From the NCBI GenBank assembly GCA_949292785.1, contig CASFBK010000010.1, positions 1 to 64,000 on the forward strand: DNA of 64,000 nucleotides, in the 5' to 3' direction. Below are positions 1 through 56,640 of the stretch, piece by piece; within the stretch, counting starts at the first letter, position 1, and every line of letters begins with the position of its first letter. The notes beneath the pieces are model-generated. The model was not told where the DNA came from. It saw only the letters and a list, made by a program, of their open reading frames with translations, and did not search any database. Origin of the DNA: an uncultured Eubacteriales bacterium. GTDB taxonomy: Bacteria; Bacillota; Clostridia; Lachnospirales; Lachnospiraceae. The position numbers were made by a program, and so were the translations under genes.

Positions 1-92
1 AATTATGTCGCAAGCGACTGTGCTCGGCGCGGCAAAGTGTGTTCCGCTTGATAGGTAATGTATATTCGCGAGAGTGTGCGGAGCACACTTTG
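1..92 (+). repeat. Composite structured repeat, copy A (5' end outside window)
   Basis: Bases 1-29 match bases 56598-56626 exactly and nearly match 50672-50700. This core contains the small hairpin GTCG-CAAG-CGAC. It is followed by a long hairpin: bases 33-47 pair with 78-92 over 15 positions, 14 Watson-Crick and one G-U possible in RNA. The same plan is seen in copy B but with different arm sequence. The element ends 40 bp before trpS, so it may lie in the trpS leader. The left arm, if present, is cut off by the window edge. Confidence 0.7.
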
Positions 93-132
93 TTCTACCA
101 TAAAAATATGGTGAAATATAGGAGGAGAAGAA

Positions 133-1224
133 ATGAGCAAAATTATTTTAACCGGAGACAGACCAACAGGAAAGCTTCATGTAGGACATTATGTAGGGTC
201 TTTGAAACGAAGAGTAGAATTACAGAATTCCGGGGAATTCGATAAGATTTTTATTATGATTGCAGATGCACAGGCATTGACGGATAACGCAGATAATCCG
301 GAAAAAGTGCGTCAGAATATCGTGGAGGTTGCGTTAGACTATATGGCATGTGGATTAGACCCGGCAAAGTCTACCCTATTCATCCAGTCCCAGATACCGG
401 AGCTGTGTGAATTATCCTTTTACTATATGAATCTGGTTACTGTTTCCAGACTTCAGCGGAATCCTACCGTAAAGTCCGAGATTCAGATGCGTAACTTTGA
501 AGCAAGCATTCCGGTTGGATTTTTTACTTATCCTATCAGTCAGGCAGCGGATATTACTGCATTTAAGGCAACTACGGTTCCGGTAGGAGAAGACCAGATG
601 CCTATGTTAGAGCAGACCAGAGAAATTGTACACAAGTTCAATTCCGTATATGGCGATACGCTGGTAGAGCCGCAGATTTTACTGCCGGACAATGAAGCAT
701 GCTTACGTCTTCCGGGAATTGACGGAAAGGCAAAGATGAGCAAGTCTCTTGGCAACTGTATTTATCTGTCCGAGGAAGCAGACGAGATTAAGAAAAAGGT
801 TATGAGCATGTTTACTGACCCGAATCATCTGCGTGTGGAAGACCCGGGTTCATTAGAGGGAAATACCGTATTTATTTATCTTGATGCATTCTGCAAGGAC
901 GAACATTTTGAACGTTATCTGCCGGAGTATGCGAACCTTGACGAGTTAAAGGCGCATTATCAGCGTGGTGGACTTGGAGACGTAAAAGTGAAAAAATTCC
1001 TGAACAATGTATTGCAGGAAGAATTAGAGCCAATTCGTAACCGCAGAAAAGAATTGCAGAAGGATATTCCGTACGTATATGAGGTACTGAAAAAGGGCAG
1101 TGAAGAAGCAGAAAAAGTGGCAGCCCAGACATTGGATGAGGTAAGAAGTGCCATGAAGATTAATTATTTTTCTGATGCTGAGTTGATTAAGGAACAGTCA
1201 GAAAAGTTTCAGGGGGAATTGTAA
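133..1224 (+). CDS. trpS: Tryptophanyl-tRNA synthetase
   Basis: Charges tRNA-Trp with tryptophan in the cytoplasm; class I aminoacyl-tRNA synthetase. The HIGH-type motif appears as TGKLHVGHY at residues 11-19 and the KMSKS loop is intact at residues 201-205 (KMSKS). Length 363 aa is slightly longer than the usual 330-340 aa, matching the Clostridial form. The ATG at 133 follows AGGAGGAG with good spacing. It stands alone: a structured repeat lies upstream and a 77-bp repeat array begins at its stop codon. No T-box sequence is visible in the 132 bases available upstream, but most of any leader would be outside the window. Confidence 0.97.
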
Positions 1225-1438
1225 GCCGAAGGCTCGAAATTACAGCATAATTCCTCGCTTAGGGCTGTCGCCCAATACGCTAAAAGTTGAGAAAGCCCCA
1301 AGCTGAAGGCTCGAAATTATAGCATAATTCCTCGCTTAGGGCTGTCGCCCAATATGCTAAAAGTTGAGAAAGCCCCAAGCCGAAGGCTCGAAATTATAGC
1401 ATAATTCCTCGCTTAGGGCTGTCGCCCAATATGCTAAA
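1223..1438 (+). repeat. Three tandem 77-bp repeats after trpS
   Basis: Units begin at 1223, 1300 and 1377, an exact period of 77 bp; the third is cut at about 1438. They differ at only a few positions. Each contains AGCATA and TATGCT arms (TACGCT in unit 1) around an inner GGGC-TGTC-GCCC hairpin, and the unit start AAGCCGAAGGC is partly complementary to GCCCTTCGGCTT at 1495-1506. The first unit overlaps the trpS stop codon. A diverged relative of the hairpin part lies near 21640-21665 in inverse orientation. There are no variable spacers, so this is not CRISPR. Confidence 0.9.
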
Positions 1439-1446
1439 AAACAGAG

Positions 1447-1485
1447 AAAGTCGTGGATGAGAATAAATTCTCCCCACGACTTTTT
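1447..1485 (+). terminator. Rho-independent terminator after trpS array
   Basis: AAAGTCGTGG (1447-1456) pairs with CCACGACTTT (1474-1483), followed by T residues. It probably ends the trpS transcript after the repeat array. The remaining bases 1486-1611 hold a copy of GCCCTTCGGCTT and a ribosome site for the next gene; no convincing promoter was identified. Confidence 0.8.
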
Positions 1486-1611
1486 CTGCTTTTTGCCCTT
1501 CGGCTTGTAGTTTCTAAAAATATGACACCTCTTTAAAAAACGATGGATTTTTTTGAAGTCGGAAAGGAGGTTTAATAGAAGTGTAAAACCAGAATAGGGT
1601 AAGGAGACGTT

Positions 1612-3402
1612 ATGATAAAACGAAAGAGGGTTATTAGCGCTGCAGTAGTCGTTTTGGCAGCGGCAGGTACGATTATGTTTTTAAAAGGAAATACAATGTC
1701 GGAAAGCAAGTACAAAATAAATAATTTTCATAACAAAGTATTGGGTGAGAATGTGTATATTTTTTCGCCGGAGGATAGTCCGGAAGAAGTGCAGCAGGTC
1801 TTAGATGAACTTTGGGAGCAACAGGAAACCAATCAGTTTGGGAAAGAACGTTACAGCGTCTTGTTCTTACCAGGTGAATATGATGAGAGTATCAAAGTGC
1901 AGGTAGGCTATTATATGCAGGTATCAGGACTTGGAATGTTACCGACAGATACCAGAATTCCGGCGCTGGAGTGTTCTGCTACCTGGTTAGGAGATGACAG
2001 CAATCACAATGCTACCTGTAATTTCTGGCGTGGTGTGGAAAATATAGATATTGGCAGCAATACTATGTGGGCGGTTTCCCAGGCGACCTTTATGCGTCGG
2101 ATAAATATCGATGGTGCCCTGTATCTGCATGACAATTATGGCTGGGCAAGCGGAGGCTTCCTGGCAGATTCCAATATAGAGCTTATGGTAGATTCCGGTT
2201 CACAGCAACAGTGGTTATCCAGAAACTGTGAATGGAACTCCTGGATAGGAGATAACTGGAACATTGTATTTTGCGGTATTGGCAGAGCAGGAGCACCGAT
2301 AGGAACCTGGCCGGCGTTTGCTTATACTACGGTAGAAGCTACAGAAGAAATACAGGAAAAGCCGTTTCTGGTTTACAAGGAAGAAGAAGGATACGGTGTA
2401 TTTGTACCGGAAATAAGAGAGAACAGTATAGGAGTTTCTTGGAAAGAAGAAAATAATGGAACTTTTATTCCGTTAGAAGAATTTTATGTGGCACATGCGG
2501 AGGAGGACGATGCAGATACCATAAATCGGGCGTTAAAGGAAGGCAAGCATCTGCTTTTAACACCGGGGATTTATCATCTGGAAGAACCGCTTCTGGTAGA
2601 ACAGAAAGATACCATTGTACTTGGAATGGGACTTGCAACACTGTCTGCGGAAAACGGAAATACTTGCATGGAAGTAGCAGACCAGTCAGGAATAAAGATA
2701 GCCGGAATTCTTTTTGATGCAGGAGTGGAAGAGTCAGAAAACCTTCTGGTGGTAGGAAATGAAGAAGAGAAGAACCTAAAGGAAGCACCGATGATGTTAA
2801 GCGATTTGTTTTTCCGGGTAGGAGGAGCAGAGGCGAAAGGTGCCAAGGCAGAGAACTGTGTGGAGATAAACAGTGACTATGTAATTGGAGATAACTTCTG
2901 GGTATGGCGTGCAGACCACGGAGATGGGGTAGGCTGGGATAGTAACACTGCCAGAAATGGAATTATCATAAATGGTGATGATGTAAGCATGTATGCTTTG
3001 ATGGTAGAGCATTTTCAGGAATATCAGACAATCTGGAATGGAGAAAATGGAAAGACCATTTTTTACCAGAGTGAAATTCCCTATGATGTGCCGAACCAAG
3101 AGGAATGGCTGAGCCATGATGGAACCGTAAATGGGTACGCCTCCTATAAGGTAGGAGACCAGGTGAAGAATCACGAAGCCTGGGGACTTGGAATTTATTC
3201 CTATCACAGAGATGCAAAAGTGGATTTGAATTGTGTCATGGAAGTACCGGAACTGGAAAATATAAAAGTACACAATATTTGTTCCGTTATGATAACAGGA
3301 AATCCGGGAATCTCTCATGTAATTAACAACGAAGGCGGAGCCGCAGAATATGCCGGCTCATTACAGATGATTCGAGAATATGCAGGAAAAATGATAAAGT
3401 AA
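1612..3402 (+). CDS. Exported right-handed beta-helix protein, GH55-like
   Basis: 596 aa. An uncleaved or cleaved N-terminal signal segment is visible (basic MIKRKR, then hydrophobic residues about 7-26, no lipobox Cys), so it acts outside the membrane. The body is rich in short Gly/Asn/Asp turns and repeated strand-like segments, and has two pectate-lyase-like openings (around residues 40-110 and 300-370) of the type found in GH55-like beta-helix proteins often misannotated as adenylyl cyclase. No catalytic residue could be assigned by eye. GTAAGGAGA precedes the ATG at 1612. It is 15 bp from the phosphorylase gene, so it is probably the extracellular enzyme or binding protein of the same operon. 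Enzyme activity is an inference; a non-catalytic glycan binder is the main alternative. Confidence 0.6.
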   Translation: MIKRKRVISAAVVVLAAAGTIMFLKGNTMSESKYKINNFHNKVLGENVYIFSPEDSPEEVQQVLDELWEQQETNQFGKERYSVLFLPGEYDESIKVQVGYYMQVSGLGMLPTDTRIPALECSATWLGDDSNHNATCNFWRGVENIDIGSNTMWAVSQATFMRRINIDGALYLHDNYGWASGGFLADSNIELMVDSGSQQQWLSRNCEWNSWIGDNWNIVFCGIGRAGAPIGTWPAFAYTTVEATEEIQEKPFLVYKEEEGYGVFVPEIRENSIGVSWKEENNGTFIPLEEFYVAHAEEDDADTINRALKEGKHLLLTPGIYHLEEPLLVEQKDTIVLGMGLATLSAENGNTCMEVADQSGIKIAGILFDAGVEESENLLVVGNEEEKNLKEAPMMLSDLFFRVGGAEAKGAKAENCVEINSDYVIGDNFWVWRADHGDGVGWDSNTARNGIIINGDDVSMYALMVEHFQEYQTIWNGENGKTIFYQSEIPYDVPNQEEWLSHDGTVNGYASYKVGDQVKNHEAWGLGIYSYHRDAKVDLNCVMEVPELENIKVHNICSVMITGNPGISHVINNEGGAAEYAGSLQMIREYAGKMIK

Positions 3403-3417
3403 GGAGAGGAAAAGAAG

Positions 3418-6108
3418 ATGTCAGGTTATGAATTTTTAGACAAGAAAGGAACTTTTGTGCTGAATCGGCCGGAAAATACCAGTTATCTGTATTTTCCTAT
3501 AGCAGGAGAAGCAGGAATAAAGGGAGCAGTGACGCCGAATCTGGGAGGTGACTTAAAGACAGACCAGAATCATTTTGTATTGCAACCGGTAAGTGCAGAG
3601 GAATTACATAATAATAAATCAAGCCGTAACTTCTGGTGCTGTATGGAACAAGGCGGATGCTGGTCCGCTACAGGAAGTTCTGCACAGGCGCAGGCGGAGA
3701 AATTTACCGATTGTCAGGAAGAGAGCAGCCTTACTGCCGGACTGATGTGGCATGAATTAAGGCGCTGTTCAAAAAAGTATCAGTTAGAAGCTGTGATTAC
3801 TTCTTTTGTTCCGGCAAAGGATAAAAATGTAGAAGTGATGCAGGTGGAAATCAAAAACAACGGAAGAATGGCAGTGACTTTTGTTCCGGTAGTAGCGGTT
3901 CCGCTGTATGGAAGAAGCGCAGACAATATTCGCGACCATCGTCATGTGACCTCGCTGTTACATAGAATTAAGACAACAGAATATGGGGTAGAAGTTACCC
4001 CAACCTTATCCTTTGATGAGCGGGGACATCAGGTAAACGATACGACTTATTATGTATGTGGAATAACCGGAAGAGGAGAAGCACCAGAAAGCTTCTATCC
4101 GGTGGTTGAGGACTTTATCGGAGAAGGTGGAAGTCTGGAACGTCCGGCGGCAGTTGTAAAAAATCAGCCGGGAGTAGAGAAAAACATCAGCATAGACGGC
4201 TATGAAGCGATGGGCGGCATCCGTTTTCATAAAGTAACACTTCAGCCGGGAGAAAGCAGTACCTATACGATTCTGATTGGACTTACAGAGAACAGAGAAG
4301 AAATTTCTCAGATGATACAGGCGTTCCAGACAACAGAAAAGGTAGAAGCAACATTAGAAGAGACCAAAAACTATTGGTTAGACTGCAATAATGTAAGCTA
4401 TCATACCGGGGACAACGGCTTTGATAATTTTATGTATTGGGTAAATTTCCAGCCAATGCTGCGAAGAATCTACGGTTGTTCTTTCCTGCCACATCATGAT
4501 TATGGAAAAGGCGGAAGAGGATGGAGAGACTTATGGCAGGATTGTCTGGCACTTCTTGTCATGGAACCATCCGGTGTACGGGATATGCTGCTTAATAACT
4601 TCGCAGGAGTACGAATGGATGGAAGTAACGCTACGATTATTGGAAGCCGGCCTGGAGAATTTGTGGCAGACCGAAATAACATTACCAGAGTCTGGATGGA
4701 CCACGGTTTCTGGCCTTTGCTTACCACGAAATTGTACATCGACCAGACCGGAGATTGGAAGATTCTACTGGAAAAACAGAAATATTTCAAGGATAAACAG
4801 GTATGCAGAGGAACCAGCACGGATACCGAATGGAATCCGACATATGGAACCATCCAGAAGGATAAGAAGCAGAACGAGGTAGAAGGAACGATATTAGAAC
4901 ATTTACTGTTACAGAACCTGACCGCGTTCTATGAAACAGGAGAACACAATCATTTCAGACTGCGTGGTGCTGACTGGAACGACGCCCTGGATATGGCAGA
5001 AGAAAAGGGAGAAAGTGTAGCCTTTACTGCCGCTTACAGCGGGAATTTTAGAACATTGGCAGAGCTTCTTCGTCTGTTTGTAGAAAATGGAGTAGAGGAA
5101 ATCGAGCTGGCGGAAGAAATGGAACTGCTGTTAAAGCAGGCGCCAGGCATGTATGAAGATACCAAGAAGAAGAACCAGGTTCTGGCAGAGTATATGGATT
5201 CCTGTATTCATGAGATATCCGGAAAGAAAGTAAAGATTTCCAGTGAGGAAGCAGCAAACGCCTTAGAAGGAATGGCAGACTGGGTTCAGGAGCATATCAG
5301 AAAGACGGAATGGGTAAGTGACGAAAGTGAAAATAGCTGGTTCAACAGTTATTACGATAATCATGGCAGACAGGCGGAAGGCGTTTTTGAAGATGGTATC
5401 CGTATGATGCTGACCGGACAGGTATTTTCCATTATGTCCGGTACGGCAACCGAGGAACAGACCGCAGAGATTGCCAAGGCGGCAGACGAATATCTGTATA
5501 AAAAAGAAGCCGGAGGCTATCGTCTGAACACCGATTTTGGTGAGGTAAAAACAGACCTTGGAAGAATGTTTGGATTTGCCTACGGACAGAAGGAAAATGG
5601 AGCAGTATTTTCCCATATGACCGTAATGTATGGAAATGCTCTGTATCAGCGTGGCTTTGTAAAGGAAGGCTACAAGGCATTACATACCTTATATGAACAG
5701 GCGGCAGACTTTGAGCACAGCCGCATTTATCCGGGAATTCCGGAATATTTCGACGGAAGAGGCAGAGGAATGTACCATTATCTTACCGGTGCAGCAAGCT
5801 GGCTCATGATGACAGTAGTACAGCAGATGTTCGGTATTCGTGGAGAAATGGGGAATCTGGTATTGCAGCCGAAGCTTTTAGCAGAACAGTTTGATGAAGA
5901 GGGCAGGGCAGAGATTTCATTTACCTTTGCAGGGCGCAAATTCCATGTGATTTATGAGAATCCAGCAGGAAAAGAATATGGAACCTATCAGATTGGAGCG
6001 GTAACACTGGACGAAAAAGAGCAGGAAGCAGTGCTGACGAAAGAAGTGATAGCTTCGTTGAACAAAGATATTGTGCATGAGATAAGAGTAAAATTGAGTG
6101 AAAAATAA
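3418..6108 (+). CDS. GH94-type glycoside phosphorylase (laminaribiose/cellobiose phosphorylase-like)
   Basis: 896 aa, without a signal peptide, so cytoplasmic. The family breaks a beta-glucosidic bond with phosphate to give glucose 1-phosphate, saving ATP. Layout fits GH94: N-terminal beta-sandwich (about 1-300), helical linker, (alpha/alpha)6 barrel (about 330-830) and a short C-terminal sheet. The catalytic motif DWND is at residues 519-522 within GADWNDALDMA. The N-terminal stretch with VTPNLGGDLKTDQN and KSSRNFW resembles the laminaribiose-phosphorylase branch as I recall it, but substrate cannot be fixed by eye. It follows the beta-helix gene by 15 bp and precedes a second large phosphorylase-like gene by 20 bp. 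AGGAGAGGAAAAG precedes the start. Confidence 0.82.
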   Translation: MSGYEFLDKKGTFVLNRPENTSYLYFPIAGEAGIKGAVTPNLGGDLKTDQNHFVLQPVSAEELHNNKSSRNFWCCMEQGGCWSATGSSAQAQAEKFTDCQEESSLTAGLMWHELRRCSKKYQLEAVITSFVPAKDKNVEVMQVEIKNNGRMAVTFVPVVAVPLYGRSADNIRDHRHVTSLLHRIKTTEYGVEVTPTLSFDERGHQVNDTTYYVCGITGRGEAPESFYPVVEDFIGEGGSLERPAAVVKNQPGVEKNISIDGYEAMGGIRFHKVTLQPGESSTYTILIGLTENREEISQMIQAFQTTEKVEATLEETKNYWLDCNNVSYHTGDNGFDNFMYWVNFQPMLRRIYGCSFLPHHDYGKGGRGWRDLWQDCLALLVMEPSGVRDMLLNNFAGVRMDGSNATIIGSRPGEFVADRNNITRVWMDHGFWPLLTTKLYIDQTGDWKILLEKQKYFKDKQVCRGTSTDTEWNPTYGTIQKDKKQNEVEGTILEHLLLQNLTAFYETGEHNHFRLRGADWNDALDMAEEKGESVAFTAAYSGNFRTLAELLRLFVENGVEEIELAEEMELLLKQAPGMYEDTKKKNQVLAEYMDSCIHEISGKKVKISSEEAANALEGMADWVQEHIRKTEWVSDESENSWFNSYYDNHGRQAEGVFEDGIRMMLTGQVFSIMSGTATEEQTAEIAKAADEYLYKKEAGGYRLNTDFGEVKTDLGRMFGFAYGQKENGAVFSHMTVMYGNALYQRGFVKEGYKALHTLYEQAADFEHSRIYPGIPEYFDGRGRGMYHYLTGAASWLMMTVVQQMFGIRGEMGNLVLQPKLLAEQFDEEGRAEISFTFAGRKFHVIYENPAGKEYGTYQIGAVTLDEKEQEAVLTKEVIASLNKDIVHEIRVKLSEK

Positions 6109-6128
6109 ATAGACAGGAGGAATAAAAC

Positions 6129-9100
6129 ATGACACAGACATTTACAATTAAGAATTACGGAAAAAAATCTAATTTTGCCAGTTTTCTTCCGGGCATTTCA
6201 GGAAAGAAAGGAATTCCTATCTGGTGCTATTATGTAAACCGGGGACAGGGCGTGGTAAGCTTCGGTGTAGAGGATAAAGACCATGCGATTATGGAATTCT
6301 ATCCGGCGCATCAGGCATATCAAAATGTAAAAAGAACAGGATTCCGTACTTTTTTGAAAAAAGACGGATATTATATAGAAAGCTTTCAGAATGAGGATAA
6401 GCCTCATTCTATGGAAATCGGAATGAATACCTTTACCATTCGGGAAAAGGATGAGGTGAATCGTTTGGATACAGAGGTAACATACTTTACGCTTCCCGAT
6501 GAAAAGGTAGGAGCATTAGTGCGTAAGGTAACTATTACCAATACAGATATGCATGACTGCGAACTGGAAATTTTGGATGGAATGCCATCTTGTATTCCCT
6601 ATGGAGTAGATAATACAAGTATGAAGACCATGGGACAGACCACTAAGGCATGGATGCAGGTAGAAGATGTGGAAAGAAATGTTCCGTATTACCGTGTGCG
6701 TGTCAGCATGGAAGATTCCGCTACTGTATCTAAGGTAGAAGGTGGAAACTTTGCATTTGCCTGCTTCGCGGATGGAACAAAATTGAAAGCCATTGTAGAC
6801 CCGGATGCAGTATTTGGTTATGATAACAGTTTAGAGAAAGCAATCGGCTTCTTAGAAAGCAGTGTAGAAGAACTGATAGAATATCCACAGGTAACAGCCA
6901 ATCAGCTTCCTTGCAGTTTCTTTGCCGCAAAGCAGACCTTAAAAGCAAAGGAAAGCATTACATTATATGAAGTAGTGGGTCAGGTAGTAAATAAAGATGT
7001 ATTGAAAAAGTTCATGCGTCAGGAATTCAATGAAGATTATTTTGAACGGAAATTCTGTAAGGCAATGAATCTTACGGAAGAATTGTGTAAAGGAATCGAA
7101 ACCCATACAGGAGACGAACGTTTTGACACGTATTGCAAATATACGTATTTAGATAATCTGCTTCGTGGAGGTTATCCGGTAAAAATAACAGATGATAAGG
7201 TGTTCTATGTATATTCCAGAAAGCATGGAGATTTGGAACGTGATTACAACTATTTCTGTATGCTGCCGGAATTCTATACCCAGGGAAACGGAAACTTCCG
7301 TGATGTGAACCAGAACCGCCGCTGTGATACAGAATTCGAGCCATTTGTAGGTGATAGAAACATCAAAATGTTCTACAGCCTGATTCAGTTAGACGGTTAT
7401 AATCCATTAGGCGTAGAAAAAGTAACATATCAGTTAAAGCCGGAAGATGCGAAAAAACTTCCGTTATCTGCTGAATTACAGGAATCCTTTGAAAAACCAT
7501 TTACTCCGGGTGAAGTATTCCGCAGACTTGAGGCTATTGGTATGCAGGAGGAAGAGCAGCAGAAGCTGTTTGAGACGATTTTAGCAAAGGCAGAGGAAAC
7601 CGTAAACGGTAACTTTGGCGAAGGTTACTGGTGCGACCACTGGACCTATAATCTGGACCTGATTGAAAATTATCTGGCGGTATTTCCGGAACGGGAAGAA
7701 GAGATGCTGTATGACGGTTCTTATACGTGGTTTCTCTCCCAGATTAACATTAACAAAAGACAGAAACGTTATGCAAAAGCACCTCAGGGAATCCGCCAGT
7801 ATCATGCATTAGAGGAAAGCAGCCGCAGAGACGGCAGCCAGAAGCTGGTGAAAGACCAGAAAGGGGAAACCCTTCATGCCACCCTGATGGAGAAATTATT
7901 GCTGCTTTGTGCCGTAAAGTATGCTACACTGGATGCTTATGGCATGGGAATTGAAATGGAAGGCGGAAAGCCGGGCTGGTATGATGCATTAAACGGAATG
8001 CCGGGAATCTTCGGTTCCTCCATGGCAGAGACCTGCGAGCTTGGCAGAAATCTTTCCTATACCATAAATGCATTGGAAAAGTATCAACATCAGGTAGAAA
8101 TATTAGAAGAAGTAGCAGAGCTGATAAATGCATTGGCAAAGGTTACGGTAGAAGAAAAGCAGAGCCTTTTACATGACGAAAAGGTAATGGGATTCTGGAA
8201 CAAAGCAAATGATATCAAGGAAGCTTATCGTGAGAAGACCTTTGCGGGCGTATCCGGAAAGAAAATATCTATAAATTCCGATGAACTGGCAGCTATCTTA
8301 AAAGAATGGAAAGAGGTAGTAGATGCAGGAATTAAAAAGGCATATGGCATTGGAAAGGATATTTTCCCGACCTACTTTACCTATGAAGTGACAGATTATG
8401 TAGAAAATGAAGACGGTATTGAGGTAAAAGACTTTGAGGTAAGACCGGTACCATTCTTCTTAGAAGGACCGGTAAGATATTTGAAGCTGGACTTAGAACA
8501 GCAGCAGAAACAGAAATTATATAAAGAAGTAAAGGGCAGCGATTTGTATGATAAGAAGCTGAGCATGTATAAGGTAAATGCGAACCTTGCGGAAGGCTCC
8601 TACGAACTGGGAAGAGCCAAGGCATTTACACCGGGATGGCTGGAAAATGAATCCATCTGGCTTCATATGGAATATAAATACTTACTGGAATTATTAAAAT
8701 CCCAGATGTACGGCGAATTCTTTGAAGACTTTAAGAAAGCGGCAATTCCATTCTTAGACCCGGAAACCTACGGAAGAAGCATTTACGAGAACTCCTCCTT
8801 CTTAGCAAGCAGTGCGAACCCCAATAAGTCTTATCATGGCAAGGGATTTGTAGCAAGACTCAGCGGTTCCACGGTAGAATTCTTACAGATGTGGCAGCTT
8901 ATGATGTTTGGAAAACAGCCATTTACCGTAGAAGATGGTAAGCTGAACTTAAGATTCCAGCCTGCAATTCCGAAGTATCTGGTAGGAAAAGAGAAAAAGG
9001 TAACTGCAATGTTCTTAAGCAGTATCCCGGTAACCTACCATATGAAAGAAGAAGCAGATTGTATTCCGGGACAGTATAAGATTACCTCCATTGATGTGGT

Positions 9101-9215: not shown

Positions 9216-9233
9216 ATTAAGGAGGAGAAAAGG

Positions 9234-10559: not shown

Positions 10560-10588
10560 AAAAGAAACTAAAAAAAGAACACCTTTTT

Positions 10589-10620
10589 AAAAAAAGCGTC
10601 ATTATAAGACGCTTTTTTAT
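10589..10620 (+). terminator. Rho-independent terminator after GH30 gene
   Basis: AAAAAGCGTC (10591-10600) pairs with GACGCTTTTT (10608-10617) followed by a T-rich tail. It separates the enzyme genes from the transporter genes, although both probably serve one pathway. A TATAAT at 10625-10630 just downstream may be the -10 box of a transporter promoter. Confidence 0.85.
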
Positions 10621-10646
10621 TTTCTATAATGTAATTACAAAGAAAC

Positions 10647-10663: not shown

Positions 10664-10688
10664 CAAAGTAAAAAGGAGGATATTTACT

Positions 10689-12062: not shown

Positions 12063-12079
12063 TCAATAAAATTAAGCAG

Positions 12080-40647: not shown

Positions 40648-40684
40648 GGGAAAAGCGGGTAATCCCCGTGAAGGAAAAATATAA

Positions 40685-40856
40685 TTACAGAAGGTGCCTG
40701 TATTCTCCACAGGATAATAGGGAAATGGGTGAGAATCCCATACGGTCCCGCCGCTGTATGAGTGGAGTTTTATCTTCATCTGTGTAAGACAGAAAGCCAC
40801 TGGGAAACCGGGAAGGTGAGATAAAGCAATGAAACTTGAGTCAGAAGACCTGCCTT
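40685..40856 (+). promoter_or_regulatory. Cobalamin riboswitch aptamer
   Basis: Conserved cobalamin-element blocks occur in order: AAGGTGCCTG (40691), GGGTGAGAATCCCATACGG (40727-40745), the B12-box core CCGCCGCTGT (40747), GCCACTGGGAAACCGGGAAGG and TCAGAAGACCTGCC (40841-40854). It lies upstream of cbiM and cbiN, the expected target class for corrinoid control of cobalt uptake. Confidence 0.95.
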
Positions 40857-40962
40857 TTGTAAGGGAATGCACGAAGTTACGAGAGATGACTGGCTGTAGA
40901 GAACTAATTACCGTAAGCTGTTCTGTTGATGTTTGGAACAGGGGAGGGAATTGGTTTATTTT

Positions 40963-47643: not shown

Positions 47644-47662
47644 AATAGATGTGACAAATGAT

Positions 47663-47696
47663 AAGGGGATTACCAATATTGGTAAATCCCCTTTCT
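47663..47696 (+). terminator. Rho-independent terminator after nfnAB
   Basis: AAGGGGATT-ACCAA pairs with TTGGT-AAATCCCCTT around a short loop (47663-47694), then T residues. Confidence 0.85.
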
Positions 47697-47763
47697 AAAT
47701 CAACAAGAAGAAACAGCGAATATTTCCATAGGAATTGGAAAGGCTAAAAAGGAGGAACCAGGT

Positions 47764-48930: not shown

Positions 48931-48967
48931 GAAGCAGATATTAGAAAGCAAGTATTAGGAAACAGAT

Positions 48968-49633: not shown

Positions 49634-49645
49634 GGAGCTTACAAT

Positions 49646-50515
49646 ATGAGTTTTAAATCATTAAAAGAAATTGTAGACAGTGCCAGAGAGCAGGAAAAGC
49701 CTTTTTGGAGAATCATTATGGAAGATGATATGTCAGAACGGATGGTATCGGAAGAGCAATCCTTTGGCACCATGAAGCAAATGTATGATACCATGCGGCT
49801 TGCGGATAAGTCTTATGATGAAAAACTAAAATCAGCCAGTGAGCTGGTAGGCGGCGATGGCAGGAGGATGAAAGATGCAGTAGAGCATGGAAAGACCATG
49901 TCCGGTGATTTCATGGGTGAAGTCATGGGAAAGGCATTAAAGATGGGAGAATCCAATGCATGTATGAAGCGGATTGTAGCGGCTCCTACGGCAGGCTCCT
50001 GCGGTGTCATGCCAGCCGTGTTTTTGACCTATCAGGAAAAATATCATGTTTCCGATGAGAAAATGACGGAGGCTATGTTCGTGGCAGCAGGGATTGGTAC
50101 AGTCATTGCAGAACGGGCATTTATTGCAGGAGCTACCGGAGGTTGTCAGGCGGAAATCGGCAGTGCAAGTGCTATGGCGGCAGGCGGACTTGCTTATCTG
50201 CAGGGTGGCAGGGAACCGGAGATTGTCCATGCGGCAGCAATGGCATTAAAAAGTCTTTTAGGATTAGTCTGTGACCCGGTGGCAGGACTGGTGGAGGTGC
50301 CTTGCGTCAAGCGTAATGTAATTGGTGCTGTCAATGCCATTACCAGTGCAGATATGGCAATGGCAGGTATCGTTAGCCGTATTCCGCCGGATGAGGTAAT
50401 TGATGCCATGCGTTCTATTGGAATGGCATTGCCAAGCTCCTTAAAAGAGACCGGAGAAGGCGGTCTTGCGGCAACGCCTACCGGAGAAGAAATTGCCAGG
50501 AGAATATCAGAATAA
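49646..50515 (+). CDS. sdaAA: L-serine dehydratase, iron-sulfur alpha subunit
   Basis: 289 aa catalytic subunit. Cluster Cys are in APTAGSCGVMPAVFL (about residues 112-126), GATGGCQAEIGSASAMAAG and LVCDPVAGLVEVPCVKRN. AAGGAGCTTAC upstream of the ATG. A strong terminator follows. The two-subunit form is the normal one in Clostridia and is oxygen-labile, which may explain the flavodiiron gene next door. Confidence 0.95.
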   Translation: MSFKSLKEIVDSAREQEKPFWRIIMEDDMSERMVSEEQSFGTMKQMYDTMRLADKSYDEKLKSASELVGGDGRRMKDAVEHGKTMSGDFMGEVMGKALKMGESNACMKRIVAAPTAGSCGVMPAVFLTYQEKYHVSDEKMTEAMFVAAGIGTVIAERAFIAGATGGCQAEIGSASAMAAGGLAYLQGGREPEIVHAAAMALKSLLGLVCDPVAGLVEVPCVKRNVIGAVNAITSADMAMAGIVSRIPPDEVIDAMRSIGMALPSSLKETGEGGLAATPTGEEIARRISE

Positions 50516-50537
50516 TGTTAAAACATGTAATAGTAAG

Positions 50538-50576
50538 AAAAGACTGAATTTCCGAAAAATGGGATTCAGTCTTTTT
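50538..50576 (+). terminator. Rho-independent terminator after sdaAA
   Basis: AAAAGACTGAAT (50538-50549) pairs with ATTCAGTCTTTT (50564-50575), continuing into T. Copy B of the composite repeat begins immediately after. Confidence 0.9.
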
Positions 50577-50766
50577 ATATCATAGGAATACCTCGTTACA
50601 TCAACTATAAAAGCATTGATTTTCCTATGATATAAAAACGCTCCGCTAAGGATGCGCAATCGCACAAGCGGTAAAATGTCGCAAGCGACTGTGCTCGGCG
50701 CGCAAAGTGCCCAAGTCCCTCATGAGTGAGGGAGCTAGGGAGTTGAAAGTGGACTTGTTCACTTTA
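50577..50766 (+). repeat. Composite structured repeat, copy B (complete)
   Basis: Left hairpin: 12-bp perfect arms 50577-50588 and 50622-50633 with a 33-nt loop. Core 50634-50700: TGCG-CAAT-CGCA hairpin, then GTCG-CAAG-CGAC hairpin and TGTGCTCGGCG, nearly identical to copy C and copy A. Right hairpin: arms 50704-50718 and 50751-50765 with a small internal loop, enclosing TCCCTC/GAGGGA. Arm sequences differ from the other copies while self-complementarity is kept. It ends about 10 bp before the scrR operator. Confidence 0.8.
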
Positions 50767-50776
50767 ATATAGTTTT

Positions 50777-50796
50777 TTGTGGAATCGGTTACATAT
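50777..50796 (-). promoter_or_regulatory. LacI-type operator in front of scrR
   Basis: TTGTGGAATCGGTTACATAT matches the reverse complement of the operator at 51954-51973 at 18 of 20 positions. It is 44 bp upstream of the scrR start and implies autoregulation. Confidence 0.75.
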
Positions 50797-50839
50797 TTGT
50801 GGTACACTGAAAGGGAATTAGAAAAAGAGGTGTTTTATT

Positions 50840-51832
50840 ATGGAAAAAAAGGTTACTATGGCAGATATTGCCAGACTTTCCGGTGTGGGAAAAAGTACGG
50901 TCTCACGTTATTTTAACGGAGGATATGTAAAGGAGGAGACCAGAAAGCGAATTCAAAAGGTAATTGAAGACTATGATTATGAACCCAATACTTTTGCGCG
51001 TCTGAATGCGAAGGAAAGTAATGTGATTGGAGTGGTAGTGCCTACTTTAAACTCCAAGATTACAGGCAGAGTCATTACAAGTATTGACCGATATCTGAGG
51101 GAACGTGGATATACTACAATTATCAAAAGCTCGGACCATGATGTTTCCCTGGAGCTTCAGAATCTGAAACGTCTGGCAAGACTGAATGTGGATGGCATTA
51201 TTTTAAGTGCGTTATCGGTTACTTCCGAACAGGAAGCGGCTGTAAAAGAAGCTGGGATTCCGGTGGTAGTTTTAGCCCAGAATTATCCTTCCGGTATTTG
51301 TGTTCTGGATGATGATTATGGAGCGGGGTATGCCATGGGAACATATATTGGAAAGAGAAAATTCCAAAAGGTAGGATATGTAGGAATTTCACAAAGAGAT
51401 GAGGCAGTGGGAATCGTCCGGAAAAAAGGTGTCATGGAGGGGGTGGCAGCCGAAGGAATTCACCAGGTATATATTGCTCTGGGAGATTACAGCTTTGAAA
51501 GTGGCTATGAAGCAGCAAAAGAGCTTTTGGACAAGGAGAAAAAGTTAGAAGCAATCATCTGTGCCACAGACCGAATGGCATTTGGCGTTTACAAATATTT
51601 AGGAGAGATGGGACTTCGCATCCCGGAGGATGTGTCAGTGTCAGGGTTTGGAGGATATGATGAAAGTGAGCTTTTAAATCCGGCGTTGACAACCTTGAAG
51701 TTTGATTCTTATCGTGTGGGAGCGTTGGGAGCCGAAACACTGCTTAAAATAATTTCAGGTGAAAAGGTTTCCACAAAACAAATGGTAGGGTTTGAATTTA
51801 TTGAAGGTGGAAGTGTAAGAAAAACAGAGTAA
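50840..51832 (+). CDS. scrR: LacI-family sucrose regulon repressor
   Basis: 330 aa. N-terminal helix-turn-helix TMADIARLSGVGKSTVSRYF (residues 5-24), then a periplasmic-binding-like effector domain (IGVVVPTLNSKITGRVITSI; ICATDRMAFGVYKYLGEMGLRIPEDVSVSGFGG). It precedes the sucrose PTS genes and three matching operators lie in front of it and of the PTS gene, so it probably represses both until the sugar or its phosphate is present. AAAAAGAGGTG is the ribosome site. Confidence 0.9.
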   Translation: MEKKVTMADIARLSGVGKSTVSRYFNGGYVKEETRKRIQKVIEDYDYEPNTFARLNAKESNVIGVVVPTLNSKITGRVITSIDRYLRERGYTTIIKSSDHDVSLELQNLKRLARLNVDGIILSALSVTSEQEAAVKEAGIPVVVLAQNYPSGICVLDDDYGAGYAMGTYIGKRKFQKVGYVGISQRDEAVGIVRKKGVMEGVAAEGIHQVYIALGDYSFESGYEAAKELLDKEKKLEAIICATDRMAFGVYKYLGEMGLRIPEDVSVSGFGGYDESELLNPALTTLKFDSYRVGALGAETLLKIISGEKVSTKQMVGFEFIEGGSVRKTE

Positions 51833-51888
51833 TATACGGGTCTTTGTATAAATTAAATAAAAATGAATGAAAAGATTTGTATAATATT

Positions 51889-51908
51889 TTGTGGAACCGA
51901 TGCCATAA
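51889..51908 (+). promoter_or_regulatory. Upstream ScrR operator of the PTS gene
   Basis: TTGTGGAACCGATGCCATAA; shares GGAACCGAT-CCA with the operator at 51954. Centre-to-centre distance to that site is 65 bp, and the promoter lies between them, fitting DNA looping. Confidence 0.75.
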
Positions 51909-51913
51909 AAGTG

Positions 51914-51942
51914 TTGAAATTAGAAAATAGTTGTATTATAAT
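51914..51942 (+). promoter_or_regulatory. Promoter of the sucrose PTS operon
   Basis: TTGAAA (51914-51919) and TATAAT (51937-51942), 17-bp spacer, flanked on both sides by ScrR-type operators. Confidence 0.85.
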
Positions 51943-51953
51943 AAAATCAACAA

Positions 51954-51973
51954 ATATGGAACCGATACCACAA
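51954..51973 (+). promoter_or_regulatory. Downstream ScrR operator of the PTS gene
   Basis: ATATGGAACCGATACCACAA lies just after the expected transcription start and close to the ribosome site, where bound repressor would block the polymerase. Confidence 0.78.
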
Positions 51974-51989
51974 AAAGGAGGAGAACGGT

Positions 51990-53969
51990 ATGGATTATGG
52001 AAAAGTTGCAAGTGAAGTGATTAAGTATGTTGGCGGAAAGGGCAACGTCAAATCAGTTACCCATTGTGCCACAAGACTGCGTTTCCAGCTAAAAGATAAT
52101 GAGTTGAGAAATGAAGATGCAATCAGTGATTTAGAAGGAGTAAAAGGCGTATTCCTGACACAGTCACAGTTTCAGATTATTTTTGGTTCCGGTCTGGTGA
52201 ATCTGGTCTGTGCGGAGGTTCAAAAACAGTTGGGATTGTCAGAGGAGACCAGGGAAAATCAGGGAGAAGAGAAGGAAGAGAAAAAAGGAAACTGGCTTCA
52301 GCGTTTTGTAAAACTGTTGAGTGACATTTTTGTACCAATTATACCGGCGATTGTAGCAGGTGGTCTGTTAATGGGAATTAACAATATTCTGACCGCTGCA
52401 CTGATTGACGGAAAGTCAATTATTGAGCTATATCCCCAGTGGGAAGGCTTGGCAACCGCCATTAATACGTTTGCCAGTGCACCTTTTACCTTTTTACCGG
52501 TTTTGATTGGATTCAGTGCAACCAAGAAATTTGGAGGAAATCCATATCTGGGCGCTGCCATGGCAATGATTATGGTACATCCGGATTTGCTGAATGCTTA
52601 TTCCATAGGTGTAGCGGAAGCTCCTGTCTGGAACATTTTCGGATTTAAAATTGCAGCCATCGGTTATCAGGGAACCGTGCTTCCGATTCTAGCAGTTTCA
52701 TGGATTCTGGCTACCATCGAGAAAAAGCTCCATAAAGTAACACCAAGCTGGCTGGATAATCTGACCACCCCTTTGCTTTCTATTATGATAACTGCATTTT
52801 TGACCTTTGCAGGAGTAGGTCCGGTTCTTCGTGAAGCAGGAAATCTTCTGGCAGATGGTATTACCTGGATTTACAATACATTAGGATTTGTAGGAGGCGG
52901 AATTTTTGGACTGTTCTATGCTCCGATTACATTAACAGGAATGCATCACAGCTTTATTGCGATTGAAACACAGCTGATTGCAGAGAGCGCTACCACGGGA
53001 GGAAGCTTTATCTTTTCTACCGCCAGCATGAATAATGTTGCTCAGGGAGCAGCGGTACTGGCAGTTTTGATGCTGACTAAGAATCAGAAAATGAAATCTA
53101 TCTGTTCTGCGTCCGGTGTTTCTGCTTTACTTGGAATCACAGAGCCTGCAATGTTTGGTGTAACCTTAAAATTAAGATATCCTTTTTATGCAGCAATGAT
53201 TGGTTCAGGAGTAGGTAGTGCGTATCTTGCAGCAACCAAAACGCTGGCACAGGCTATGGGAGCAGCAGGTCTGCCGGGATTTATTTCCATGAAGCCGGAG
53301 TCATATTTGAATTTTGCGATTGGTCTTGTATTATCAATGGCGGTATCCTTTATCCTGACCATGATTTTCTGGAAAAAATTCAATCTGGCACAGGCAGAGG
53401 GAGCAGGAAAGGGAAAAAAAGAATCAGAAGAATCAGTAGTTACGTTGGAAAATACATCAACAACGGAAAATGCATCAGTAACGGAAAATACATCAGCAAC
53501 AGGAAATAAAGCAACTACGATAGAATTATCCGCTCCGGTCAGAGGAAAGGTAATGCCAATTACAGAATCTGCAGACGAGGGATTTGCATCAAAGGCAATG
53601 GGAGATGGAATTGCAGTTGAGCCCGTAGAGGGAATGGTGTATGCTCCATGCCGGGGAACCATCAGTATGCTGTTTCCGACCCATCATGCCATTGGAATGA
53701 AAACAGAAGAGGGTGCAGAATTCCTGATTCATATTGGAATTGATACGGTAAAACTGAACGGAGAAGGCTTTACAGCATTAGTGGAAGAAGGCGCTGCGGT
53801 AGAAAAAGGACAGGAATTAATCCAATTTGATTTAGCGTATTTAAAGGCTCAGAATATCAATCCACAGACCATGCTGATGCTGACCGATGCAGAAGAAGAC
53901 ACAGTGGTAGAAGTGTATCCGACCGAACAAGGTGAGGAAAGTAAGACAGTAATGAAAGTGAAATTATAG
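51990..53969 (+). CDS. scrA: Sucrose-specific PTS enzyme IIBCA
   Basis: 659 aa single-chain PTS permease of the glucose/beta-glucoside/sucrose superfamily. IIB domain at residues about 1-90 with phospho-Cys in SVTHCATRLRFQL; IIC membrane domain about 100-470 with some ten helices (MHHSFIAIETQLIA is a family landmark); a Thr/Asn-rich linker; IIA domain about 515-659 with the active His in FLIHIGIDTVKLNGEGF. It imports sucrose as sucrose 6-phosphate. Sucrose rather than beta-glucoside is assigned because the next gene carries GH32 and fructokinase domains. AAAAAGGAGGAG precedes the ATG. Confidence 0.92.
   Translation: MDYGKVASEVIKYVGGKGNVKSVTHCATRLRFQLKDNELRNEDAISDLEGVKGVFLTQSQFQIIFGSGLVNLVCAEVQKQLGLSEETRENQGEEKEEKKGNWLQRFVKLLSDIFVPIIPAIVAGGLLMGINNILTAALIDGKSIIELYPQWEGLATAINTFASAPFTFLPVLIGFSATKKFGGNPYLGAAMAMIMVHPDLLNAYSIGVAEAPVWNIFGFKIAAIGYQGTVLPILAVSWILATIEKKLHKVTPSWLDNLTTPLLSIMITAFLTFAGVGPVLREAGNLLADGITWIYNTLGFVGGGIFGLFYAPITLTGMHHSFIAIETQLIAESATTGGSFIFSTASMNNVAQGAAVLAVLMLTKNQKMKSICSASGVSALLGITEPAMFGVTLKLRYPFYAAMIGSGVGSAYLAATKTLAQAMGAAGLPGFISMKPESYLNFAIGLVLSMAVSFILTMIFWKKFNLAQAEGAGKGKKESEESVVTLENTSTTENASVTENTSATGNKATTIELSAPVRGKVMPITESADEGFASKAMGDGIAVEPVEGMVYAPCRGTISMLFPTHHAIGMKTEEGAEFLIHIGIDTVKLNGEGFTALVEEGAAVEKGQELIQFDLAYLKAQNINPQTMLMLTDAEEDTVVEVYPTEQGEESKTVMKVKL
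53448..53501 (+). repeat. Three 18-bp coding repeats in the PTS linker
   Basis: Units at 53448, 53466 and 53484 encode ENTSTT, ENASVT and ENTSAT between the IIC and IIA domains. Such an array can gain or lose units by slippage without breaking the frame, changing linker length. Confidence 0.85.
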
Positions 53970-53994
53970 GAAACGAATGAGAGGGTGCAGAACT

Positions 53995-56454
53995 ATGAAA
54001 AAATATGAAAAAGTCTTTCCAAAGGATTATAAAAAGTGGCATAAAGAGAATCGTGCATATAAAGAACAGGTACGTCAGGATAAAGACAGACTTCATTATC
54101 ATCTGATGCCGGAAACCGGATGGCTGAATGATCCCAATGGGTTATGCCAGTTTCACGGAACGTATCATATTTATTATCAGTTCACTCCATTTGAACCTAC
54201 CGGAGAGCTGAAGCTGTGGGGACATTACACCACAAAGGACTTCATTCATTTTCAGAATGAGGAACCGGTATTGTTTCCAGATACGGAATATGATGCCCAC
54301 GGTGTATATTCCGGTTCGGCATTTATTGAAAAGGATTTGATTCACTATTTTTATACAGGCAATGTGAAATATTTTGACCGGGATGATTATGACTATATTA
54401 TGAAAGGACGGGGCAGCAATGTACTGCATGTTACCAGCAGAGATGGCAGACACATGTCTGAAAAAGAATTGCAGCTGACCAATGCAGATTATCCGTCTGA
54501 TATGAGTGCTCATGTACGCGACCCAAAGGTCTTTCAAAAAGACGGAAGTTATTATATGGTACTGGGAGGAAGAGACCAAAACAGCAAAGGACTGGTGCTT
54601 TTATATCAGTCCGAGGATTTGGAACACTGGAATTTTGTAAATAAGATTACCACAAAGGAAACCTTTGGTTATATGTGGGAGTGTCCGGATTTGTTTGAAG
54701 TAGACGGACAGATGATGTTGATTTGTTGTCCCCAGGGAGTGGAACGTCAGGGCATTAATTACGAAAATGTGCATCAATGTACTGCAATGAAGATAAAGTA
54801 TGATTTTCAGAATCATAGCTATGAAATAGCAGAAGGAAAGGATATCCGGCAGGTAGACCGGGGATTTGATTTCTATGCACCACAGACCTTTGAGGATGAA
54901 AAGGGCAGAAGGATTCTGATTGGATGGATGGGAATTCCGGATGCAGATTATACCAATCCTACCGTGGAGCGCGGCTGGCAGCATGCATTGACGATACCAA
55001 GGCAGCTTCATGTAAAAAACGGGCGTCTCTATCAGCAGCCCATCGAAGAGCTGAAAGCGCTGAGAAAAGGAAAAGAAACATATGCCTTTTCCGAAAAAGA
55101 AGAGAAGAACAAATGGAGTCATCCAACAGCAGAGGAAGGAATGAATGCTCTGTGTTATGAAGCAGCAGTGGACTTTGAAACGTGTCAGGATATGTTTTTT
55201 ACCCTGCGTCAAGGTGTAACCCTGTCCTATCAGGAAGGAATACTGGTATTGGACTTAGGAGAGCATGGAAGCGGCAGAACCACCAGAAGCGTTGCCGTTT
55301 CAGAACTGAACAATCTGCGTATTTTTTCCGACACCTCTTCACTAGAAATTTTCGTAAATGACGGAGCAGAGGTTTTCACAACCAGAGTATACGGACATCA
55401 GCCGGAAATTTCGATAAGTGGAAATTGCCAGGGAACAGCGACGATTTACGGATTGCAGCCAGTGGAAATGACAGAACCGGACAATAAGCTTTGCGCGATT
55501 GGAGAGGCATTGATTGATTTCATTCCCTCACAAAAAGGACAAAGATTAAAGGATGTAGCAGCTTTTTCCAGAGTGGCAGGCGGAGCTCCGGCAAATGTAG
55601 CAGGGGCAGTGTCAAAGCTCGGGATACCATCTAAGGTTCTTACCAAGCTTGGAGCAGACCCTTTCGGCGATTATATTCAGGAGACGTTAGAGAAGATAGG
55701 AATTGACACCAGTCAGATAAAAAGAGACAAAGAGGGTGAAACGGCGTTAGCTTTTGTGTCTCTGGCAGCAGATGGAAACCGGGATTTTAAGTTTTACCGG
55801 AAGAACAGTGCTGATTTGCGCTTTGCTCCTGAGGATATTTCAGAAGATGTGTTGGATGATTGCGGTATGATTCATTTTTGCAGTGTAGATTTGGTAGAAT
55901 CTTCTATGAAGCAGGCACACAGAAAATTGATTCAGATGGCAGTCAGCCAGAAAAAAATGGTATCTTTTGATCCAAACCTGAGATTTTCTCTATGGGATGA
56001 TTTGGAATGTTTAAAGCAAACCGTAAATGAGTTTATGGAGTATGCGGACATTATCAAGATTTCCGATGAAGAGCTGGAATTTATTACCGGATATACCAAT
56101 ATAGAAGAGGCGCTGCCGGAATTATTTGCCCACAGAGCGAAGTACATCGTCTATACCATGGGCGGTGATGGCGCTGCGGTTTATACCAGACAGGGGAAGG
56201 TGATGGTACCGGGATATCACGTAGCGGTACGAGATACCACCGGAGCCGGAGATTCCTTTATCGGCGCATTTCTATATTGTATTTTAAATGACAGAGTAAC
56301 AGATTTAGAAACAGTAAGCGAGGATACCTTAAAGAAGTATTTGAAATTTGCGAATGCATATGCTGCTTATACCACAACAAAGGAGGGCGCATTGGACGCC
56401 ATGGCATGGGCAGATGAAATGGATGCATGGGTAAGGAAGTTAGAAGAACAATAA
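53995..56454 (+). CDS. Sucrose-6-phosphate hydrolase fused to fructokinase (GH32-PfkB)
   Basis: 819 aa from the ATG at 53995 (GAGAGGG upstream; an earlier ATG at 53977 has a weaker site). Residues 1-490 are a complete GH32 enzyme: nucleophile Asp in GWLNDPNGL, RDPKVF, acid/base Glu in MWECPDLF, C-terminal beta-sandwich. Residues about 492-819 are a full-length PfkB/ribokinase-fold fructokinase: CAIGEALIDFIP, GGAPANVAGAVSKLG, catalytic Asp in DTTGAGDSFIGAF. The linkage is MTEPDNK at 492. So one protein would split imported sucrose 6-phosphate and phosphorylate the released fructose. No stop or frameshift is seen at the junction. In most relatives these are separate scrB and scrK genes. Confidence 0.95.
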   Translation: MKKYEKVFPKDYKKWHKENRAYKEQVRQDKDRLHYHLMPETGWLNDPNGLCQFHGTYHIYYQFTPFEPTGELKLWGHYTTKDFIHFQNEEPVLFPDTEYDAHGVYSGSAFIEKDLIHYFYTGNVKYFDRDDYDYIMKGRGSNVLHVTSRDGRHMSEKELQLTNADYPSDMSAHVRDPKVFQKDGSYYMVLGGRDQNSKGLVLLYQSEDLEHWNFVNKITTKETFGYMWECPDLFEVDGQMMLICCPQGVERQGINYENVHQCTAMKIKYDFQNHSYEIAEGKDIRQVDRGFDFYAPQTFEDEKGRRILIGWMGIPDADYTNPTVERGWQHALTIPRQLHVKNGRLYQQPIEELKALRKGKETYAFSEKEEKNKWSHPTAEEGMNALCYEAAVDFETCQDMFFTLRQGVTLSYQEGILVLDLGEHGSGRTTRSVAVSELNNLRIFSDTSSLEIFVNDGAEVFTTRVYGHQPEISISGNCQGTATIYGLQPVEMTEPDNKLCAIGEALIDFIPSQKGQRLKDVAAFSRVAGGAPANVAGAVSKLGIPSKVLTKLGADPFGDYIQETLEKIGIDTSQIKRDKEGETALAFVSLAADGNRDFKFYRKNSADLRFAPEDISEDVLDDCGMIHFCSVDLVESSMKQAHRKLIQMAVSQKKMVSFDPNLRFSLWDDLECLKQTVNEFMEYADIIKISDEELEFITGYTNIEEALPELFAHRAKYIVYTMGGDGAAVYTRQGKVMVPGYHVAVRDTTGAGDSFIGAFLYCILNDRVTDLETVSEDTLKKYLKFANAYAAYTTTKEGALDAMAWADEMDAWVRKLEEQ

Positions 56455-56464
56455 CGGAAAAGAT

Positions 56465-56502
56465 AGCAGGCAGTGGTGCATAAAAACCACTGTCTGCTTT
56501 TT
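56465..56502 (+). terminator. Rho-independent terminator after sucrose operon
   Basis: AGCAG-G-CAGTGGT pairs with ACCACTG-T-CTGCT, followed by TTTT. Copy C of the composite repeat starts directly after it, as copy B starts after the sdaAA terminator. Confidence 0.9.
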
Positions 56503-56503
56503 A

Positions 56504-56640
56504 CTCTATAGAAAATACCATGTTGTATTAAAGCGTAAAATTGTGATTCCTATAGAGCAAAAAGCACTCCGTGCAGGATGCGCACTCGCACAAGTGGAAT
56601 TATGTCGCAAGCGACTGTGCTCGGCGAAAAAAATTATATT
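56504..56640 (+). repeat. Composite structured repeat, copy C
   Basis: Left hairpin arms 56504-56514 and 56547-56557 (one mismatch) with a 32-nt loop; core 56558-56626 with TGCG-CACT-CGCA and GTCG-CAAG-CGAC hairpins and TGTGCTCGGCG. In place of the long right hairpin there is only an A-run/T-run stem (56627-56647). It precedes the second sigma-factor operon. Past it, TATAAT at 56671-56676 could be a -10 box. Confidence 0.78.

What the first reader, a model, noticed from the sequence alone, without database searches (positions are those of the whole stretch)
1..56640. Composite repeat with conserved core and per-copy self-complementary arms
Three copies (1-92, 50577-50766, 56504-56640) share a core of small hairpins (TGCG/CGCA, GTCG/CGAC, then TGTGCTCGGCG). 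The flanking long hairpins have different sequences in each copy, yet each is self-complementary: 12/12 bp and 10/11 bp for the left arms with loops of 33 and 32 nt, and 15 bp with one G-U for the right arm of copy A. Keeping structure while changing sequence is what selection for an RNA fold would produce. Copies B and C start within a few bases after a terminator, and all three end in front of a gene (trpS, scrR, a sigma operon). It could be a structured RNA, a non-autonomous mobile element, or a transcription/boundary element. I do not know a named family for it.
Basis: partly seen in the sequence, partly recalled or inferred. Interest (0 to 1): 0.72.

Follow-up and report, generated by a model that had tools for sequence, protein, structure and literature searches.

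The report
Mobile hairpin element that follows terminators
The three look-alike stretches belong to a large family of about 190-base hairpin-rich DNA elements, for which I found no name, that settle right after the stop signals of genes in many gut bacteria; what moves them is not known.

Summary
The three copies belong to a family with about 45 places in this genome, in 52 of 200 sampled family genomes (own included) and in two other families of the order. Anatomy: host intrinsic terminator with T-run; left palindrome (4 variable bases, ATAGGAAA...TTTCCTAT, complement, A5); hairpin P1; core stem P2-P3-P4; right hairpin with T-rich tail. Of 134 copies, 119 follow a T-run and 91 a hairpin plus T-run (random positions: 84 of 5360). 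Empty, remnant and filled orthologous sites in sister species show a mobile element. The arms covary (85-90 of 95 paired, shuffles at most 70). G-U pairs are not in excess over A-C mismatches (20 against 40), so covariation alone does not argue for RNA. Best reading: a non-autonomous mobile element that targets terminator T-runs, its ends kept as hairpin substrates. The mobiliser is unknown: this genome shows no Y1 match, no IS110 match above the cut-off, and two reverse transcriptases of retron and defence type. No Rfam match.

The parts
1..95 (+). Copy A, type 1, cut by the contig edge: end of core and long right hairpin ending TTTGTTC; trpS frame starts at 133
   Evidence: trpS
50538..50576 (+). 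Host terminator-like hairpin of the serine dehydratase alpha gene, with the T-run after which copy B sits
   Evidence: 12/12 arms 50538-50549 / 50564-50575, 14-nt loop; too long a loop for the scan, which called no terminator; gene
50577..50638 (+). Copy B left palindrome (left arm, loop, right arm with element-borne A5 50634-50638)
   Evidence: 17/17 with the host T-run; z -5.3
50639..50703 (+). Copy B core: P1 and the P2-P3-P4 stem (GCGC...GTCGCAAGCGAC...GCTCGGCGC)
   Evidence: R2 63.9 bits at 50650-50704
50704..50768 (+). Copy B right hairpin, the type also seen in L072 and L148
56465..56502 (+). Host terminator-like hairpin of the GH32/PfkB gene and its T-run, after which copy C sits
   Evidence: 13 nt, 92%; gene
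56504..56563 (+). Copy C left palindrome (imperfect) with A5
56564..56626 (+). Copy C core; right hairpin missing; sequence homologous to an empty site in G760 resumes at 56627

Best explanation
The repeats are copies of a small (type 1 about 189 nt) non-autonomous mobile element of Lachnospiraceae and two related families. It inserts immediately after the T-run of an intrinsic terminator, in the terminator's orientation. Shown: terminator association, insertion polymorphism at orthologous sites, modular anatomy, an element-borne A5 able to pair with the host T-run, covarying stems. Inferred: an enzyme supplied in trans recognises the two end hairpins, probably as single-stranded DNA, and the A5 helps pick the T-run by base pairing, in the manner of the guide sequence of IS608. 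Because the right end is itself a hairpin with a T-rich tail, each insertion would leave a new target behind, which would give the tandem copies seen, and it does not interrupt the upstream transcript. Enzyme and strand chemistry are unknown.
For: Copy number and spread. Target: 119 of 134 copies after T>=4 and 91 of 134 after a hairpin ending at that run, against 385 and 84 of 5360 control positions; the same counts, 119 and 91 of 134, when copies are picked without regard to the outer arms. The T-run ends exactly 5 nt before ATAGGA in 97 of 119. Empty, remnant and filled orthologous sites in sister species. Of 13 copies with readable flank and no T-run, 11 still carry the A-run, so it travels with the element; in 15 type-1 copies of this genome the base next to the T-run mismatches its partner in 8 (AC 5, CC 2, AG 1), as expected if that base is host DNA. 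Arms: 85-90 of 95 paired at offsets -4 to -1, shuffle maxima 70, 39, 47, 40. Tandem tendency: ATAGGAAA-like start within 35 nt after the right hairpin in 25 of 129, control 296 of 6450.
Against: No mobiliser found: no Y1 in G000, no gene family recurring beside the copies. Nine type-1 copies here are 89-97% alike, so the activity may be past. Right-hand junctions are less sharp: at two sites about 22 extra bases lie between the TTTGTTC end and homologous flank. 35 of 172 core hits have no ATAGGAA-like motif upstream and 3 have no inner partner. Two genomes of another family share copies at equal spacing, i.e. long vertical retention, as a functional element would also show.
Confidence: 0.72

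Rival explanations
1. A structured RNA (3'-end regulatory RNA or sRNA) whose fold is under selection; dispersal is secondary.
For: Core stem covariation on 61 sequences: 96.4% of cells paired against 92.7% shuffled, 41 cells with double changes against 11.3, 0 of 500 shuffles reach either. A type-2 element folds far better than shuffles (z -7.1 with its left palindrome, -3.1 without).
Against: A-C mismatches are not rarer than G-T pairs: left palindrome offsets -4 to +4 17 and 13, P2-P4 23 and 7; an RNA fold should tolerate G-U. Counts are sequences, not independent events; within single genomes the left arms show 10 A-C and 8 G-T variants. Promoter-like sites do not consistently exceed shuffles: 2 against 1.1, 0 against 0.7, 1 against 0.4, 1 against 1.0, but 3 against 0.2 in L110. 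No Rfam match. Downstream gene orientation mixed.
Confidence: 0.18
2. Left-arm covariation is mutational: template switching between the arms keeps the palindrome perfect without selection (compatible with the best explanation).
For: Among near-identical copies, 71 double Watson-Crick changes against 17 one-sided changes (clusters span genomes, and copies were required to pair at 3 of 4 outer positions, which favours this). The process is described in print (abstract start of PMC8794818).
Against: Within genomes 13 double against 25 one-sided variants (some of the latter are misplaced hairpins). It does not explain terminator targeting, the conserved ATAGGAAA, or core pairing.
Confidence: 0.35
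3. A retroelement using group IIC-like targeting (hairpin plus short pairing).
For: Same kind of target as group IIC introns (passage in PMC3898094). RVT_1 is commoner in element-bearing genomes: 38 of 52 against 78 of 148, p 0.014.
Against: No intron match in Rfam. G000's two reverse transcriptases score best as retron I-B and UG31. Copy-rich G008, G087, G166, G172, G177 (of 19 with 7 or more matches) show no RVT_1.
Confidence: 0.08

Closest known systems
IS200/IS605 elements (IS608) and their non-autonomous derivatives
   Same: Hairpin near each end, target stays in the left flank, element-borne bases can pair with the target (IS608 passages)
   Different: No Y1_Tnp match in G000 or in 8 of 19 copy-rich genomes; the A5 sits 3' of the left hairpin here, the guide 5' in IS608
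Group IIC introns
   Same: Insert at terminator hairpins using short pairing (passage in PMC3898094)
   Different: About 190 nt, no ribozyme match, no group II type among G000's two reverse transcriptases
REP/REPIN with RAYT
   Same: Intergenic palindromes, many copies
   Different: Larger and composite, ATAGGAAA rather than a GTAG or CGTC tag (tags from the title of PMC3733652), no Y1 in G000
BOX and bcr1 repeats of Gram-positive bacteria (anatomy recalled; only listings seen)
   Same: Structured, dispersed, non-coding
   Different: No sequence comparison made here; terminator targeting not known to me for them

Membership tests
IS200/IS605 derivative | Hairpins near both ends, no terminal inverted repeat | tested here: met
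   the two ends were compared by eye
IS200/IS605 derivative | Y1 transposase in the genome | tested here: not met
   0 matches in G000; 34 of 52 element-bearing against 81 of 148 other genomes, p 0.20
IS200/IS605 derivative | Internal guide pairs with the retained target | tested here: inconclusive
   A5 opposite the T-run, element-borne; pairing not shown to matter
MITE | Terminal inverted repeats and target duplication | tested here: not met
   ends unlike each other by eye; no duplication beyond ambiguous T/A seen at two aligned empty sites
Group IIC intron | Insertion after terminators | tested here: met
Group IIC intron | Group II ribozyme and maturase | tested here: not met
REP/RAYT | GTAG or CGTC tag and RAYT gene | tested here: not met
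   copies read by eye; Y1 absent in G000
IS110 with bridge RNA | IS110 transposase in the genome | tested here: not met
   G000 one match below the cut-off inside a 1451-aa frame; none in G358, G087; above the cut-off in 3 of 7 genomes tried (G166, G176, G236)
Structured ncRNA | Covariation | tested here: met
Structured ncRNA | Stable transcript | not testable with these tools
   no RNA-seq at hand

The most novel reading that the evidence does not exclude
A transposition system that chooses terminators by base pairing between an element-borne A-tract and the host T-run, carried out by an enzyme class not yet tied to such elements, whose cargo ends in its own terminator-like hairpin so that every insertion makes a new safe site.
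Probability: 0.25. Interest if true: 0.85.

Novelty: new variant of a known kind. Interest (0 to 1): 0.62.

Why it matters
It is an abundant structured element across many Lachnospiraceae genera with no Rfam match and no name that I found (paper searches). It may add a second hairpin terminator to gene ends, it lies at several contig breaks of this assembly, and it offers a natural test of how a mobile element finds terminators and of whether covariation proves RNA function.

Tried and rejected
Rejected: an autonomous version beside the copies (no protein group within 1.5 kb spans more than 6 loci; the largest are frames overlapping the element, the next mostly look like ordinary genes; ordinary genes between paired copies in G236, read by eye). 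Y1, group II and IS110 as necessary mobilisers. Phages and plasmids: no plasmid match with one query, an element of G085; 24 phage records, of which three were fetched: beside the element two carry bacterial-type genes (tRNA methyltransferase and PTS in one, a fatty-acid-kinase-like gene in the other), the third was not scanned for genes. Viral pattern scans gave 0 and 5 hits; the five stretches read did not look like the element.

Weak points. In one search, of 192 candidate copies 175 were away from edges and 134 had a left hairpin of 10 or more pairs with the motif; that choice favours paired arms and T-runs, so I recounted without it (172 core hits, 134 with motif and inner partner, 95 unique). 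The first arm counts, 98-99 of 104 with 3 copies dropped, and A-C 17 to G-T 7 are superseded by 85-90 of 95 and 17 to 13; for this reason I raised the RNA rival from 0.15 to 0.18. From the 57 cores four were left out of A2 as false or disrupted; from the 119 cores, 13 of another subtype were set aside, near-duplicates collapsed to 62, and one more left out of A3 (61). The right hairpin search required a T-rich tail, so that feature is there by construction; P5 stem counts allowed G-T and are not used. P1 was taken as the best small hairpin, without a control. The consensus scan called no terminator at copies A and B, called the right end in L079 and L110 and only the host terminator in L036. 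The genomes are taken to be the same 200.

Full report
Check of the observation. The window starts at the first base of contig C10 of a 3.65 Mb genome in 30 contigs, so copy A is cut by the contig edge. Blastn with copy B finds 40 places in the genome, a core-plus-right-end model finds 39, and merging both gives 45 places, two of which on contig C4 are probably one element. Rfam has no match at gathering level in the window except a cobalamin riboswitch elsewhere, and only sub-threshold microRNA matches in six loci.

Anatomy. From the copies read: a host intrinsic terminator with its T-run; a left palindrome made of four variable bases, ATAGGAAA, a loop, TTTCCTAT, the complement of the four bases, one C or T, and AAAAA; a small hairpin P1 (best small hairpin, 106 of 109 unique stretches with two or more pairs, 98 of these with a 3-nt loop, 48 of them TCC; no control); the core GATGCGCACTC...; and a right hairpin with a T-rich tail (129 copies, tail required by the search). 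In the core, P2 (GCGC/GCGC), P3 (GCGCG/CGCGC or GCACA/TGTGC) and P4 (GTCGC/GCGAC) form one irregular stem. On 61 cores of one subtype 96.4% of cells pair against 92.7% in shuffles, with 41 double-change cells against 11.3. In a second subtype (13 cores set aside) P2 seems to gain a pair by matching bases on both sides (read by eye).

Spread. The model R1 matches 52 of 200 genomes sampled from the family, 51 of 199 genera, own genome included. R2, the core alone, matches 20 of 295 genomes of the order, including two other families, and 5 of 291 sampled from the class, all in the same family. No plasmid match with one query. Two of the 24 matching phage records were examined and lie beside bacterial-type genes.

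Target. Of 134 copies with a recognisable left palindrome, 119 have four or more T within 9 nt before ATAGGA and 91 have in addition a stable hairpin ending at most 3 nt before that run; among 5360 random positions of the same loci the figures are 385 and 84. Choosing copies by core and inner motif alone, without regard to the outer arms, gives again 119 and 91 of 134. The run ends exactly five bases before ATAGGA in 97 of 119. Five of 134 sit on a right-end-like tail, and 25 of 129 right ends are followed within 35 nt by an ATAGGAAA-like start, against 296 of 6450 in controls.

Mobility. In 8 of 11 sister-species loci read, the serine dehydratase gene that precedes copy B here lies before the sigma operon that follows copy C here (read by eye): G760 has a terminator and then the operon's upstream sequence with no element, G763 a left-end remnant, G779 and G780 core and right end without the left end, and G759, G764 and G765 only their own terminator. 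At a second locus G760 is empty between TTTTT and the downstream gene, where this genome has the 190-nt element and G763 a lone left palindrome with other arms. At a third, G760, G764 and G765 are empty, G757 carries an element with different arms at the same T-run (its sequence has a gap of N), and G771 a remnant. At the second and third loci about 22 further bases follow the right end before homology resumes; at the second they resemble the start of a left end. Nine full type-1 copies here are 89-97% identical (median 94%).

Structure: RNA or DNA. The left arms covary beyond doubt: at offsets -4 to -1, 90, 85, 86 and 86 of 95 unique copies pair, against shuffle maxima of 70, 39, 47 and 40 (an earlier count on a set chosen by its hairpin gave 98-99 of 104). 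But there is no excess of G-U: the left palindrome has 17 A-C mismatches and 13 G-T pairs (offsets -4 to +4), P2-P4 have 23 and 7. Selection on an RNA fold of this strand should favour G-U. Within single genomes the left-arm variants are 10 A-C and 8 G-T. These are counts of sequences, related by descent. Arm changes could come from selection on an ssDNA hairpin or from template switching between arms (abstract start of PMC8794818). For the latter, near-identical copies across genomes give 71 double and 17 one-sided changes (on a set chosen to pair); against it, single-genome comparisons give 13 and 25.

The A-tract. Of 13 copies with a readable flank and no T-run in front, 11 keep the A-run behind the right arm, so it belongs to the element. 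The base between T-run and arm fails to match in 8 of 15 type-1 copies here, so it probably belongs to the host. Pairing of element-borne bases with the retained left target is the logic of IS608 (passages of PMC5934647). That this pairing matters here is inference.

Mobiliser. This genome has no Y1 transposase match. Its two reverse transcriptases score best as retron type I-B and UG31. Its one IS110 match is below the curated cut-off and inside a 1451-aa frame. Y1 is present in 34 of 52 element-bearing and 81 of 148 other genomes (p 0.20), reverse transcriptase in 38 of 52 and 78 of 148 (p 0.014); of the 19 genomes with 7 or more matches, G087, G166 and G177 show neither. No protein group recurs beside the copies in more than 6 loci. 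The enzyme may have been lost from this genome, since the copies are not identical.

Comparison and verdict. It works most like a non-autonomous element with hairpin ends that uses the terminator as a landing site, as group IIC introns do (passage of PMC3898094). It is filed under no named family: Y1, terminal inverted repeats, ribozyme and REP tags were tested and not met. Paper searches listed nothing that names it; passages of PMC2267715 and PMC12306157 do not mention Lachnospiraceae. Fremin and Bhatt 2021 (PMC8040213, passages only) give thousands of structured candidates and its tables were not open to me, so the element may be among them unnamed. A terminator effect is plausible but weakly tested: the scan called the right end in 2 of 5 stretches.

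Noticed in passing
window 40675-40871: Cobalamin riboswitch, 114.5 bits.
   Followed up: no
L038 1647-1776: A copy with a 19-nt tandem array (6.6 units) inside the core.
   Followed up: partly
L018, L020, L022, L026: A second hairpin-like stretch (ACTGTGTACGCTATTA...) inserted in the core loop of several copies.
   Followed up: no
L119, L187: Another nested repeat (GGTCTACGCT...CGCTTCGGTC) inside copies in Coprococcus comes and a MAG.
   Followed up: no
window 50840-56454: A LacI-PTS-GH32/PfkB block lies between copies B and C, at a site where sister species have the two flanking genes side by side.
   Followed up: partly
L273 (C13 about 39.9-40.5 kb) and L274 (C10 about 64.8-66.5 kb, just past the window): Retron I-B-like reverse transcriptase with a DUF6602 neighbour that weakly matches PD-DExK and NucC models, and a UG31-like defence reverse transcriptase that appears split in two frames.
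   Followed up: partly
core bulge between P3 and P4, e.g. L089, L127: In some copies the bulge reads GATAGGAA, like the ATAGGAAA of the left palindrome; shared binding site or pseudoknot possible.
   Followed up: no
contigs C9, C10, C22, C28 (starts), C5, C15 (ends): Several contigs of this assembly begin or end in or very near a copy.
   Followed up: no
G236 and G268: Pairs of copies at equal spacing (3136 and 3299 bp) in two genomes of another family point to long vertical retention.
   Followed up: partly
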